64,000 nt of DNA from Sporosarcina koreensis (GTDB lineage Bacteria; Bacillota; Bacilli; Bacillales_A; Planococcaceae), in NCBI RefSeq assembly GCF_000826145.2, contig NZ_LN651337.1, forward strand, positions 1,181,774 through 1,245,773, in the 5' to 3' direction. This document shows positions 15,169 to 54,960 of the stretch, piece by piece (position 1 is the first letter of the stretch; each line of letters starts with the position of its first letter). The notes beneath the pieces were generated by a model, which made no database searches, had not been told where the DNA came from, and saw only the letters and a list, made by a program, of their open reading frames with translations. Both the position numbers and the translations under genes were made by a program.

Positions 15169-15529
15169 ACTGATTTCCTCCTTCAGATAAAATAAGTACG
15201 TGCTCCCTCAGTATACCAAAATCCGCATGTCCTTCACGCCGCCGTGTGACAAACTCATGACGTTTGGGCCTGACCTGCCGTACTCCTTCTATGTACTATT
15301 CTCTTTTCTCCGGAAATCAAACCTCTTGCCAGGAAGAATTTTATGGAGGGCTGTCCAGCTGCAGTTCTGGTGGATTTCAAGGTTTCAAACTATGCAGGAC
15401 GGGTAAACAGCCGATTAAGAGCAGCACAGCAAAGCTCGGAATATTTTCAATTTTCGCTTGCAATGCCGCGGGAAACACGGTAAGCTAACGTGTAATTGAA
15501 CAAAAACTTATTTCGCAACGTTCGAAGTA
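15169..15529. other. Intergenic stretch before the dapA leader
   Basis: About 360 bases between the start of cccB and the lysine riboswitch. It must hold the divergent promoters of both units. TTGAAC near 15497 is the best -35-like match for dapA. No coding region with a credible start was seen. Confidence 0.5.
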
Positions 15530-15705
15530 AGGATAGAGGCGCAAAAACCATCAGTACGCAGTCCGAGGAGATTGAGCTCCGGAGACGGCCGCGGAAAGGG
15601 GAATTTGCCGAAGCGGGAGGATGCTCAAACGTCCCCACGCTGGTTCTGGACTGAACAAGTGCAGGACTGTCATATAGGCGACTATATGGAGGGCTATCTG
15701 ATGCA
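15530..15705 (+). promoter_or_regulatory. Lysine riboswitch (L box)
   Basis: The conserved lysine-aptamer blocks appear in order: ATAGAGGCGC at 15533, a GGAAAGGGG block near 15592, GCCGAAGC at 15607, CTGGTTCTGGACTGAA around 15640, GGACTGTCA at 15663 and GGAGGGCTATCTGATG at the end. The spacing between blocks agrees with a five-way-junction aptamer. A terminator follows within 25 bases and dapA about 65 bases after that, so lysine should cause premature termination. Confidence 0.93.
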
Positions 15706-50527: not shown

Positions 50528-51181
50528 CTAATACATCAAATATTCTAAACATATTATTCCTGATAATTCTCTTAATATTTCTGGAGATATCTTTGAAATG
50601 AATTCTCTGTATTGTTCACTGTTTCTTAGCAATATGGTTACGTCTGAATAACGAAAAGTAAGATCCCCCAATATACGCCATTCTCTTTCGTGGGTCCAAT
50701 CTATTATGCTATTTCCGGAATACGCTTGAGTCATATCAAAATTTACAATTCTCCAAGCTTCAGATGTCGGTAAAAACTCTTTAGCTATATTTGTTTTCTC
50801 ATAAATTACTGGTCGGGCTCCAGTGTTAGGTATTGGGGCATCAAAGGTATCAACTAACTGTGCTAAATTAACTTTAGAAAAAGCCAGCCCGCAAGGATAA
50901 TATCTTAACTTAGTGGTTTGTCCTTTTTCATATTCCTCAATATGATTTATAGCATTTTGCGCGACTGAATATAAAGGTATATCCTGAAAACATACTACCT
51001 TATTTCCGCCTACTATATATCCTTTTGAGCTTCCAATCAGTAGTCGATCATTTAATATCTTCACCAATATGTCAGTCGGATTTCCATATAATTCACTTCC
51101 TTTAGTCAAATGTGTAAGCATGCCGGTTACATCGCTACGTTGTTTAATATTTTGTTTATATTGATTAATTGAGTAAGCCAT
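50528..51181 (-). CDS. AbiGi/DUF2971-like putative phage-resistance protein
   Basis: 217 residues. The pattern MLTHLTKG near the N-terminus, CFQDIPLYSV, GLAFSKVNL, GARPVIYEK and the strongly conserved-type WTHEREWRI near the C-terminus resembles AbiGi and related DUF2971 proteins tied to abortive phage infection. AT-rich like its neighbour. No AbiGii-type nucleotidyltransferase partner was recognised, which leaves the role open. Confidence 0.6.
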   Translation of the reverse strand: MAYSINQYKQNIKQRSDVTGMLTHLTKGSELYGNPTDILVKILNDRLLIGSSKGYIVGGNKVVCFQDIPLYSVAQNAINHIEEYEKGQTTKLRYYPCGLAFSKVNLAQLVDTFDAPIPNTGARPVIYEKTNIAKEFLPTSEAWRIVNFDMTQAYSGNSIIDWTHEREWRILGDLTFRYSDVTILLRNSEQYREFISKISPEILRELSGIICLEYLMY

Positions 51182-51312: not shown

Positions 51313-51322
51313 TTTAACCTTA

Positions 51323-51367
51323 TTAGCGCAACAATTGAAGAACGCCCTGCGGTTGCTGGTTTGCTTG
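51323..51367 (-). other. hag: Terminal hag exon: canonical flagellin C-terminus
   Basis: On the minus strand CAAGCAAACC... encodes [14 protein letters not shown] and a stop. This is the standard Bacilli flagellin ending. It has no start or ribosome site and lies immediately after the second intron core. Spliced to GCT at 51745 (the alanine of AQAMLA) it would restore [20 protein letters not shown]. The preceding base is G, as group I 3' splice sites require. Confidence 0.8.
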
Positions 51368-51744
51368 CGACTTGTCCCGTCATTTCTAAACGAGGTCAGA
51401 CTATATCTTCATCCTGCGGTCCTTCGGCAGGAGCTGGGCACTTCGAATGTTGCGACTTGCAACACCCTACGGATTTCATCGTCATAGCGTATACACACCG
51501 TAGACGGTATATCCTAGTCGTTGAACGTTCCCCACGGTTTCCCGACAGGGGCTTCGCTGCTGATTGTCCAATCTCTTCGTTTTTCAGGCCGTCGCGATTA
51601 CTGTTTCCAGTTGCGCTGTGGCAGAAGAGCTCTCAGGAGGTTCCAGCAATTCACCCAGTGATGCTCTTATCCGTTACCAGATAAGACGCCCGTACAACAT
51701 TATCGAAGAAGTTGGAGAACTCCTTGCGAACTCTGTTGTGCTTG
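51368..51744 (-). ncRNA. Group I intron A in the 3' end of hag
   Basis: The conserved core elements occur in order on the minus strand: GAATTGCTGGAA (P) at about 51641-51652, CAATCAGCAGCGAAGC (Q) at 51551-51566, GTTCAACGACTAG (R) at 51514-51526, and GAAGATATAGTC (S) at 51399-51410. Order and spacing match intron B almost base for base. The proposed 5' boundary (after 51745) gives about 377 nt, close to intron B. The 5' part of this interval also codes for a full alternative flagellin C-terminus with stop at 51700. The internal guide sequence was not identified by eye, so the 5' boundary is inferred. Confidence 0.72.
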
Positions 51745-53638
51745 AGCCAACATAGCTTGTGCTGCTTGAGTCAGGATGTTGTTCTTTGTGAACGACATCA
51801 TTTCTTTCGCCATCGTGCGAACATCCACTTTCATGGATGACCAGACTATATCTTCACCCTCCACTTTGGGTAGGGGTCGGGCACTTCGGAGCGGCAGGGT
51901 ACTCAGTCCTGCAGATCCTACGGGTTTCATCATCATGGGCCGGAGCCGGTAGATGGTATACCCTAGTCGTTGAACCGTCTCCACTCTTTCGAGACAGGAG
52001 CTTGGCTGCTGATTGCCCAATCTGTTCTTTTTTCAGGCCGTCACGCCTACCGTTTCCGGTTACGTTGTGGCAAGAACAGCTCTCAGGGGTTTCCAGCAAT
52101 TCACCCGATCGTACTCACTGACCGTTACCAGTCAGGACGACTGTGTTTGTCTCGTCTGCTTACGCAGCCGATAAAACATAATCCACGTCGCGGATCCGTG
52201 ATTCCGCAGCTGTGAGGTTTTCGGAAGACGTTCCGAGGTTGTTGATTGTGTGCTCTAGGCGGTTTTGGACAGCACCGAGTTTAGAGCGTTCTGCTGATAC
52301 TGTGTCAATTGCTGATTGGATAGTAGTGATAGCAGTATTTGCAGTATTTTTATTAGAAATATCTACTCCAGCTGCTGTTTTAGCATCAGCAACTTTGGCA
52401 TTACCAGAGAAAGATGCGGACGTCGCTGCTGTAGGTGTCATGTCAATAGTAATCGTATCATCGCCACCAGTGATACCGCTGGCAGGACCTGAAAGATTCA
52501 CAGAAATTCCTTTATAATCACCTGAAGCTACAGTAAACTTAGTGTCATCAGCTTTAACATTTATACTTTGAATAGTACCTGAAGCACCTGTCATAGTAAC
52601 TTTAGCTGAAACCTCAGCATTTGCATCTTCACCATTTACAGCATCTAAAGTAGTAAAGCCTAGAAGAGTTGCTCCAGTACCAACATCAGAACCAGTTAAA
52701 TCAACCTCTGAGGCTTCTCCTGTTGTTTGAATATCTGTAAGAGTTAATTTATCCCCGTTAATACCCACGTTATACTTACCTGCTCCAAGTGCTGTATCAA
52801 TGTCAGCTTGTAATGCTGTTTGGACGTCTGCCTTATTCGTGGCAGCGTCATAAGTAGCCCCGAGAGCCTTAACACTTGTTAAAGCGACATCTTGTCCATC
52901 AATAACTATCTTAGTGGCAGTATCAAAACCTACAGAAGCTCCTAAGTCATTATCCCCAGTTTTTACTGCATTAGTTGCTGCAGTTGCAGCTGATCCAGCT
53001 GTATAGCTTAATGTAATTACTTCTCCATCTTTCACCTGCGGGCCAAAAGTAGATGAGACACCTGCACTAGAAACATCTCCCGCTCCTGTTGCAGTACCTA
53101 CATTAACATCTCTTGATACCCCAAGTGATTTTGCATCCATGGCACCAATAGACAAGTTGATGTTTTGTCCCTGGTTAGCACCAATATGGAATGTCGCACT
53201 ACTAATATTTTCATCAGATACTGAACCATTTAACAATGATTTATTGTTAAATTCAGTGTCATTGGCAATACGAGTAATTTCTTGTGCTAGTTGATCGACT
53301 TCTTTTTGCAATTCAGCACGATCGGTATCGGTATTTGTGTCATTTGAAGATTGTACAGCTAATTCACGCATACGTTGTAGAATGTCGTGAGTTTCATTCA
53401 ATGCACCTTCAGCTGTCTGGATCAAAGAAATTCCATCTTGAGCATTCTTTTGAGCCATATCCAAACCACGAATCTGCCCGCGCATTTTTTCGGAGATTGC
53501 CAAACCAGCAGCGTCATCTCCAGCTTTGTTGATTTTCAAGCCAGAAGACAATTTCTCGAGGTTTTTGGAAGCGTTCGTGTTGTTTGCGCCGAGCTGGCGG
53601 TGTGTATTCATTGCTGCGATGTTGTGATTGATAATCAT
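51700..53638 (-). CDS. hag: Flagellin, interrupted by a group I intron
   Basis: Exon 1 is 53638-52181 (486 codons), exon 2 is 51813-51700 (37 codons and stop), 523 residues if joined. Start [17 protein letters not shown] has AAGGAGG upstream. The N-terminal D0/D1 region is canonical, the middle (about 52350-53150) is the AT-rich variable surface domain, and exon 1 ends with [10 protein letters not shown]. Exon 2 begins [21 protein letters not shown] and ends [14 protein letters not shown]. Without splicing the protein ends YVLSAA, losing the C-terminal helix needed for polymerisation and FliS binding. Precise splicing therefore looks essential. Preceded by a SigD promoter and a CsrA-type hairpin. 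Confidence 0.9.
51814..52180 (-). ncRNA. Group I intron B inside hag
   Basis: 367 nt between GAT (last codon of RIRDVD, ending in T as group I 5' exons do) and ATG (MAKEMM, preceded by G). P element GAATTGCTGGAAACC (about 52091-52105), Q element CAATCAGCAGCCAAGC (52000-52015), R element GTTCAACGACTAG (51963-51975), S element GAAGATATAGTC (51844-51855). Q, R and S are textbook group I core motifs. CTGACTGGTAACGGTCAG forms a P2-like hairpin. No endonuclease ORF is inside. Joining exactly at this junction restores the canonical flagellin helix. Confidence 0.9.
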
Positions 53639-54269: not shown

Positions 54270-54298
54270 GAAAAAAGAGCCAGACGGGCTCTTTTTTT
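54270..54298 (-). terminator. Terminator of the csrA operon
   Basis: AAAAAAGAGCC and GGCTCTTTTTTT pair over AGAC. It overlaps the last bases of csrA and may act in both directions. Confidence 0.85.
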
Positions 54299-54515
54299 AG
54301 TTTTTTTTCAGTTGGTTGAAGAGGCTTAGGTCGATTTCGATGGCTTCGGTGTTGCTTTCGGAGATGGATTGTACCAGTTCGCCGCGCAGGATTTCGACGG
54401 ATTTGGGGGCTTCGATGCCGATGCGGACGGTGTCGCCTTTGATTTCGATGATTTTGAGTTCGATGTTGTCGCCGATTTTGATGGATTCGTTCGGTTTGCG
54501 GGAGAGGACGAGCAT
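54297..54515 (-). CDS. csrA: Carbon storage regulator / translational regulator CsrA
   Basis: 72 residues, starting MLVLSRKPNESI with the RNA-binding R44-region (RIGIEAPKSVEILRGEL). CsrA binds GGA hairpins. Its main known target in Bacilli is the hag leader, and this window contains such a hairpin. The start lies three bases after the fliW stop, and AAAGGGGG lies within fliW. Confidence 0.97.
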   Translation of the reverse strand: MLVLSRKPNESIKIGDNIELKIIEIKGDTVRIGIEAPKSVEILRGELVQSISESNTEAIEIDLSLFNQLKKN

Positions 54516-54516
54516 G

Positions 54517-54960
54517 TCAGCGGGCCCCCTTTTGTGCCGGCGAACCGATTGGTGTGCGCAGGCTGTAGCTGGTGTCGTTCAGGATCATCTGCTTGGCGGT
54601 GTGATTCTGGATGTTGAAGATGAGCGGCGCCTGCAGGTTGATGGTCGATGATTCGAACGGAGCTTTCATGGACATGACGGACAGGATCATGAGGTCTTCT
54701 TGGGTGTCGATGCCGAGCAGTTCGAGTGTCGGGTCGTCGATGGCGAATGAGTAGTCGCTGACGACGGTGTATGGGTTCGCGACGATGAGTGCGACGCCCG
54801 GTGTGTTCACAGACTGCATGACTTGGAAGCTGTCGTTGCCGTCGATCGGCAGGAGGACGAATGCAGTTTCGTCTTCGAGGCCGGGCAGTCCTTTCGGGAA
54901 TGTCCATTGCGTGAGTGTGTCCAGGTCGAGTTCGCCGTGGAATTTGGTCTGGATGGTCAT
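54517..54960 (-). CDS. fliW: Flagellar assembly factor FliW
   Basis: 147 residues of normal length, with FPKGLPGLEDETAFVLLP and a central SVNTPGVALIVANPYTVV. FliW binds either CsrA (blocking it) or flagellin. When flagellin is depleted by secretion FliW frees hag translation. Co-transcribed with csrA. GAAGGAGA precedes the ATG. Confidence 0.96.
   Translation of the reverse strand: MTIQTKFHGELDLDTLTQWTFPKGLPGLEDETAFVLLPIDGNDSFQVMQSVNTPGVALIVANPYTVVSDYSFAIDDPTLELLGIDTQEDLMILSVMSMKAPFESSTINLQAPLIFNIQNHTAKQMILNDTSYSLRTPIGSPAQKGAR

What the first reader, a model, noticed from the sequence alone, without database searches (positions are those of the whole stretch)
51814..52180. Self-splicing group I intron splits the flagellin gene at the D0 helix
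The four classic group I core motifs (P, Q, R, S) occur in the correct order inside hag. The exon junction restores ...RIRDVD-MAKEMM..., the universal Bacilli flagellin sequence. The exon ends in T and the intron ends in G. Without splicing, the ORF stops after six foreign residues, so no filament would form. Flagellin group I introns are known from Geobacillus, but this is essential-gene placement in a distinct lineage and it occurs with a second copy.
Basis: partly seen in the sequence, partly recalled or inferred. Interest (0 to 1): 0.88.

Follow-up and report, generated by a model that had tools for sequence, protein, structure and literature searches.

The report
Flagellin introns that tag unspliced protein
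The flagellin gene holds two self-splicing introns whose first codons seem to decide what happens if splicing fails: one adds what looks like a protein-destruction tag, the other supplies a complete spare end for the protein.

Summary
The group I intron in hag is real and lies exactly where reported (52180-51814, minus strand; Rfam RF00028, 93.5 bits). A second one follows (51744-51368). Both sites are occupied in many Bacillota flagellins, and flagellin group I introns are published, so the intron itself is ordinary. The surprise is the codons each intron adds before its in-frame stop.

Intron 1 adds YVLSAA-stop. At this site 89 of 92 distinct junctions end Ala-Ala (commonest YALAA), like tmRNA/SsrA degradation tags. 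Intron 2 holds, in a long P1 loop, an in-frame copy of the flagellin C-terminus ([18 protein letters not shown]); the true last exon ([14 protein letters not shown]) follows the ribozyme. At this site 114 of 128 junctions encode a complete tail, 13 a short tag ending in Ala, 1 a decayed tail. The internal tail is under purifying selection (dN/dS about 0.09).

Best reading: unspliced messages are translated, and the first intron codons make the product degradable or complete, so stable truncated flagellin is avoided. Splicing, degradation and tail function are inferred, not tested. The Ala-Ala codons overlap an RNA hairpin, so an RNA-only cause is not excluded. My searches of a partial open library found no report of this.

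The parts
52181..53638 (-). hag exon 1, 486 codons, ends RIRDVD
   Evidence: Pfam Flagellin_N, and Flagellin_C matched only over profile 2-50 of 86; ends checked
51814..52180 (-). group I intron 1, 367 nt, phase 0
   Evidence: RF00028 93.5 bits; 5' site by P1 pairing; junction as in intron-free alleles
52160..52180 (-). intron-1 codons read if unspliced: Y-V-L-S-A-A-stop
   Evidence: 89 of 92 distinct junctions at this site end AA
52136..52141 (-). GTCGTC holding the guide of intron 1 (GUC pairs with exon GAU)
51745..51813 (-). hag exon 2, MAKEMM...AMLA, 23 codons
51368..51744 (-). group I intron 2, 377 nt, phase 0
   Evidence: RF00028 76.3 bits from 51718; 5' end moved to 51744 by exon/guide pairing and by intron-free alleles
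51700..51744 (-). internal copy of the flagellin tail in the P1 loop of intron 2: [18 protein letters not shown]
   Evidence: 114 of 128 distinct junctions at this site encode a 15-codon tail ending; purifying selection
51686..51691 (-). GGGCGT holding the guide of intron 2 (GGC pairs with exon GCU)
51320..51367 (-). hag exon 3, [14 protein letters not shown] and two stops
   Evidence: selection on this tail
54297..54960 (-). context: csrA (54297-54515) and fliW (54517-54960) upstream of hag
   Evidence: Pfam CsrA and FliW

Best explanation
Two group I ribozymes interrupt hag. Ribosomes that reach an unspliced intron stop at an in-frame stop inside the P1 loop, ahead of the catalytic core. What has been added by then sets the fate of the protein. 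Intron 1 adds YVLSAA, a C-terminal Ala-Ala tag of the SsrA kind, so a flagellin lacking its C-terminal helix is degraded (probably by ClpXP) before it can disturb export or the filament. Intron 2 sits 14 codons before the end and carries its own copy of those 14 codons, so a message that retains it still gives full-length flagellin (...[18 protein letters not shown]); spliced, it gives ...[18 protein letters not shown]. Shown by sequence: the ribozymes, the boundaries, the in-frame conservation of both payloads, purifying selection on both tails. Inferred: splicing in this strain, translation of unspliced RNA, proteolysis, function of the alternative tail.
For: Covariance matches. P1 pairing and covariation place the 5' sites. 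Site 1: 89 of 92 distinct junctions end AA, with 5 or 6 added residues; with the 13 site-2 tags, 100 of 105 end AA in frame against 1 of 105 and 0 of 105 in the other two frames. Site 2: 114 complete tails, 13 short tags ending in Ala, 1 decayed tail, of 128. Internal tail dN/dS 0.093 against 1.03 for the same DNA read one base on. Last residue of the internal tail matches that of the 3' exon in 109 of 113 genes, including Gly and Gln variants. tmRNA tags read by ARAGORN end AA in 14 of 14 and 17 of 17. clpX is present. nrd introns end AA in 0 of 15.
Against: No RNA or protein data. The Ala-Ala codons lie in or at the tip of the P1 hairpin: each of 78 distinct folds pairs at least one of their four first/second positions. 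The tag of this genus' own tmRNA ends LAFAA, not LSAA, and residue -3 is Glu in 17 of 92, which may weaken a degron. Junctions are related by descent and were found by similarity to one core, so they are not independent. Three of 92 site-1 and two of 13 site-2 tags lack AA.
Confidence: 0.66

Rival explanations
1. RNA structure only: GCN-GCN-UAA is the tip of the P1 hairpin with the stop in its loop, kept for folding and for parking the terminating ribosome outside the core. Ala-Ala is a by-product.
For: All 78 distinct site-1 folds pair some of the Ala-codon positions. The third base of the first Ala codon is mostly U or C (74 of 78), as pairing would require. In-frame stops at intron starts are known and explained by ribosome exclusion (PMC3073962, PMC3984707, passages and section).
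Against: Paired codon 2 departs from GC in 29 of 93 rows, the Ala codons in 2 and 1 of 93. Unpaired key positions carry the needed letter in 47 of 48. One-codon length changes keep the frame (78 with 5, 14 with 6 residues). Site-2 tags reach the same ending in other RNA contexts, with the last Ala codon partly in the loop. The tail class lacks the motif altogether.
Confidence: 0.17
2. Regulated isoforms: the point of intron 2 is to make two functional flagellins with different C-termini, chosen by splicing (for instance by temperature), rather than to rescue splicing failures.
For: Both tails are conserved as protein, and differ consistently: internal commonly QSNQMPQ, 3' exon QANQQPQ. Temperature-dependent splicing is reported for thermophilic Bacillus hag introns (Hayakawa and Ishizuka 2012, as told in PMC4853749).
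Against: No expression data. The tails share 84% of residues and the same last residue in 109 of 113 genes, which suits a substitute better than a new form.
Confidence: 0.12
3. Copying: internal tails persist because gene conversion or recombination keeps rewriting them from the 3' exon, without selection on the internal copy.
For: Ribozyme cores of the two sites seem to exchange within lineages (weakly resolved tree). Last residues match within genes.
Against: Within 113 genes the two tails share only 69% of nucleotides with pS 0.77, so there is no recent copying; dN/dS is low only in the coding frame.
Confidence: 0.05

Closest known systems
Group I introns in flagellin genes of Geobacillus and thermophilic Bacillus (Hayakawa and Ishizuka 2009, 2012; not held; seen only as cited in PMC3984707 and PMC4853749)
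   Same: Group I intron in a flagellin gene; in-frame stop expected; temperature-dependent splicing reported there
   Different: I could not see whether they describe the added residues or a second intron. The passages that cite them mention neither a degron nor a tail copy.
tmRNA/SsrA tagging (recalled; tags read here)
   Same: A short C-terminal tag ending Ala-Ala marks an unfinished protein
   Different: Here the tag would be encoded in the intron and added by ordinary termination, without tmRNA or a stalled ribosome
Fungal mitochondrial mobile ORFs with duplicated C-termini in atp6, atp9, cox2, nad3 (PMC3630166, passages)
   Same: An inserted element brings a C-terminal coding segment that replaces the interrupted end
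   Different: There endonuclease ORFs do it and in atp6 and cox2 the native end is not expressed; here a ribozyme carries the copy and both ends are under selection
Exon skipping between three similar group I introns in phage Twort orf182 (PMC3073962, passage)
   Same: Group I introns that could give more than one protein from one gene
   Different: There exons are skipped; here the alternative comes from retention plus an encoded tail

Membership tests
Group I self-splicing intron | Matches the curated covariance model above its cut-off | tested here: met
   Both introns, 93.5 and 76.3 bits against 50
Group I self-splicing intron | 5' exon ends in U paired with G of an internal guide; intron ends in G | tested here: met
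   Site 1: 91 of 95 rows (4 without the exact guide string). Site 2, 119 rows: GCU with GGGCG 100, GCU with GGGTC 12, UCU with GGGAC 2; the remaining 5 (2 GGGAT, 1 GGGAC, 2 none, all with GCU) do not fit or were not resolved. Window ends
Group I self-splicing intron | Self-splicing with guanosine in vitro | not testable with these tools
   No experiment
Mobile group I intron with homing endonuclease | Encodes a homing endonuclease | tested here: not met
   Introns of 367 and 377 nt; no intron ORF longer than 106 aa among the listed ORFs of 60 aa or more, and that one (51700-52020) runs on into exon 2. Judged by length; these frames were not searched against family libraries
C-terminal degron of the SsrA kind | Protein ends Ala-Ala | tested here: met
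   Intron-1 read-through YVLSAA; 89 of 92 at this site
C-terminal degron of the SsrA kind | Causes proteolysis by ClpXP or another protease | not testable with these tools
   clpX present; no assay
Alternative flagellin C-terminus | In-frame coding under purifying selection | tested here: met
   dN/dS 0.093 over 111 distinct sequences; other frames 1.03 and 4.9
Alternative flagellin C-terminus | Found in the protein or filament | not testable with these tools
   No protein data

The most novel reading that the evidence does not exclude
Flagellin group I introns of Bacillota carry fate codons: a protein-level analogue of nonsense-mediated decay in which the intron marks the product of a splicing failure for destruction or, where little of the protein is missing, supplies the missing end. 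Both payloads have been kept while ribozyme cores and insertion sites changed.
Probability: 0.58. Interest if true: 0.88.

Novelty: new variant of a known kind. Interest (0 to 1): 0.76.

Why it matters
How self-splicing introns survive in strongly expressed protein genes of cells that translate while they transcribe is an old problem. A built-in degron or spare tail would make splicing failure harmless and could explain why these introns persist in a protein whose truncated form might poison the filament. It gives cheap, decisive tests in B. subtilis. It also warns annotation: frame-based gene callers will report short or alternative flagellins and miss the true last exon.

Tried and rejected
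Essential-gene placement in a distinct lineage as the point of interest: rejected, since the sites are widely occupied. Rfam's start of intron 2 (51718) as its splice site: rejected on exon/guide pairing and intron-free alleles. A rule for group I introns in general: not supported. Of 15 nrd introns picked by exon peptide none ends AA; two more nrd-like junctions, left out of that pick, end NCVA (L075a) and SRVN (L055). Phage-type introns are mixed: of 17 read, 2 end AA and 8 end in Ala; for these I placed no splice sites, and Rfam at gathering matched only 6 of the 10 such loci I gave it, not L358, L360, L363 or L365 (L366-L372 were not given). A P10 pairing could not be made convincing by eye and is not claimed. 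P1 of site 1 has a constant mismatch: intron base 2 is A opposite C in 85 of 91, and base 7 pairs in only 72 of 91. Counts before removing repeats were 95 and 134. Dropped to reach 92 and 128: three site-2 rows that are not flagellin (L124, L179, L273) and repeats of one junction. Selection, covariation and residue figures use the earlier rows: 116 tails, 111 distinct. 68 of 402 candidate cores had no flagellin motif nearby and were left out. Two tree rows (L138_5313, L178_7670) are mis-picked core starts with very long branches.

Full report
WHAT IS THERE. On the minus strand hag starts at 53638. Exon 1 (53638-52181) ends RIRDVD. Intron 1 is 52180-51814 (367 nt). Exon 2 is 51813-51745 (MAKEMM...AMLA). 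Intron 2 is 51744-51368 (377 nt). Exon 3 is 51367-51320 ([14 protein letters not shown] and two stops). Rfam gives group I introns at 52190-51822 (93.5 bits) and 51718-51378 (76.3 bits); the held genome (93% complete) shows no further match at E 0.001. fliW and csrA lie upstream. I infer the genus Sporosarcina: contigs of same-genus handles have the lengths of named Sporosarcina records, for instance 1451442 bases for S. aquimarina MER 20.

HOW COMMON. RF00028 matches 34 of 61 genomes in the relatives set, 37 of which are of this genus, its own included. DNA like the core of intron 2 is in 66 of 398 genomes drawn from the class and 18 of 398 from the phylum; not all of these lie in flagellin genes.

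SPLICE SITES. At site 1 the exon end GAU pairs with a guide GUC, U.G at the cut, in 91 of 95 rows; the guide string was not found in 4. P1 runs on into the first intron codons: intron bases 4, 5 and 6 pair in 89, 90 and 88 of 91 rows through several pair types, while base 2 is a constant A opposite C (85 of 91). At site 2 the exon ends GCU against GGGCG in 100 of 119 rows and GGGTC in 12; the two rows with UCU have GGGAC; 5 rows do not fit or were not resolved. This puts the cut after the Ala or Ser codon, 26 nt upstream of the Rfam start. Exon 3 then gives the order seen in intron-free alleles: nine of 24 same-genus loci (L299, L301, L304, L307, L310, L313, L315, L316, L320) run RDVDMAKEMM to [10 protein letters not shown] without interruption (L304 has three more residues).

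PAYLOAD OF INTRON 1. A retained intron 1 extends flagellin by YVLSAA and stops. I collected flagellin junctions from all loci held, which came; 402 candidate cores, 68 of them without a flagellin motif. After removing repeats there are 92 distinct site-1 junctions. 89 end Ala-Ala: YALAA 44, YAEAA 11, YVLSAA 5, YTEAA 5, others fewer; the exceptions are YALAS, YALTA and YALVA. The extension has 5 residues in 78 and 6 in 14. Taken with the 13 site-2 tags, 100 of 105 end AA in frame, against 1 of 105 and 0 of 105 in the other two frames. tmRNA tags end AA in 14 of 14 loci given (12 of this genus, all GKTNNNLAFAA) and in 17 of 17 that ARAGORN could read, where 8 more loci gave none. That ClpX reads a C-terminal AA and that E. 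coli SsrA ends YALAA are recalled.

RNA OR PROTEIN. The Ala codons sit at the tip of P1. Each of 78 distinct folds pairs at least one of their four first or second positions, so folding contributes. Against RNA alone: codon 2, also paired, departs from GC in 29 of 93 rows and residue -3 from Leu in 40 of 93, but the two Ala codons depart in 2 and 1 of 93. Unpaired key positions hold the needed letter in 47 of 48, paired ones in 262 of 264. Site 2 reaches the same ending in other RNA contexts.

PAYLOAD OF INTRON 2. Of 128 distinct site-2 junctions, 114 encode a complete flagellin tail, each 15 codons long counted from the codon after Met-Leu. 13 encode a short tag: EVLAA (2), EGIAA (2), EGLAA, EEIAA, ERMAA, DEMAA, EAPAA, EVRWAA, AQFEQIAA, AQFEQVA, AQLLVA. 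One tail (L140, Oceanobacillus arenosus) has decayed. Three of the tags (L024, L148, L235) are in Bacilli at the standard site. The other ten, from a Desulfovirgula MAG and genomes outside the class, seem to sit in an intron four bases upstream (AUGCU paired with GGCGU; my reading). Over 111 distinct internal tails pN/pS is 0.24 (dN/dS 0.093); read one base on, 1.02 (1.03, 60 distinct stop-free rows), two bases on, 3.8 (4.9, 88 rows). Over 82 distinct 3' exon tails it is 0.12 (0.048). Synonymous sites are near saturation, so the ratios are rough. Within 113 genes the two tails share 69% of nucleotides and 84% of residues, pS 0.77. Their last residues go together: RR 98, QQ 6, GG 5, KR 3, QR 1. 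Both ends have thus been kept as protein for a long time, and the copy is not recent. 39 loci hold a site-1 tag and a site-2 tail, 2 hold tags at both sites (loci overlap, so these are loci, not genomes).

CONTROLS. Introns in nrd genes of the same genus end AA in 0 of 15 picked; two more, L075a (NCVA) and L055 (SRVN), also do not. Of 17 phage-type junctions (14 phage records, 1 plasmid, 2 prophage-like in Sporosarcina), 2 end AA and 8 end in Ala; 6 of the 7 in or beside tape-measure genes end in Ala, the plasmid one (L361) does not. No splice sites were placed for these and several lack an Rfam match, so this is a lead. A tree of 220 cores on 146 columns is weak (21 of 211 inner branches starred); it suggests that cores move between sites, as 15 Sporosarcina site-2 cores fall among site-1 cores.

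MECHANISM. Flagellin without its last helix keeps the N-terminal export signal and most of the core (recalled); a stable truncated form could block export or the filament. A tag at site 1 would remove it. At site 2, so near the end, encoding the missing end is cheap and saves the protein. clpX is present. Splicing, translation of retained RNA, proteolysis and tail function remain to be shown.

WHAT IS KNOWN. Reviews say that most group I introns have an in-frame stop just inside the intron to keep ribosomes out (PMC3073962, passages; PMC3984707, section 11). Flagellin introns and temperature-dependent splicing are due to Hayakawa and Ishizuka, whom I could not read (told in PMC4853749, passages). 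Ten library searches listed nothing whose title or shown abstract deals with intron-encoded degrons or tail copies in bacterial genes; most listed papers were not opened, and the library lacks most subscription journals. The nearest parallel for the tail that I saw is in fungal mitochondria (PMC3630166, passages).

VERDICT. The conserved codons before the stops are the new part.

Noticed in passing
L064, L033, L358, L362, L363, L368, L361: Group I introns or intron-like junctions in or beside phage tape-measure genes: exon 1 frames end KLAA, WPVA, LALA, EMAA, SIA, CPA in 6 of 7, and TIL in the seventh (L361). A possible second gene family with Ala-ending tags; splice sites not placed.
   Followed up: partly
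window 51368-52180; tree: Ribozyme cores of the two hag introns seem to swap between sites within lineages while the P1 payload stays; the two window introns align at 75% identity.
   Followed up: partly
L140 (Oceanobacillus arenosus): A site-2 intron whose internal tail has two stop codons, behind a flagellin frame that looks broken upstream: a decayed case.
   Followed up: no
L037 (G028:C42:130100-136800): Two flagellin genes side by side, the first-read with intron 1 only and the next with both introns; their intron-1 junction regions are identical.
   Followed up: no
window 15526-15704 (+): Lysine riboswitch, 119.4 bits, ahead of a dihydrodipicolinate synthase-like frame (my reading).
   Followed up: no
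window 50528-51181 (-): A 217-aa frame just downstream of hag with no Pfam match.
   Followed up: no
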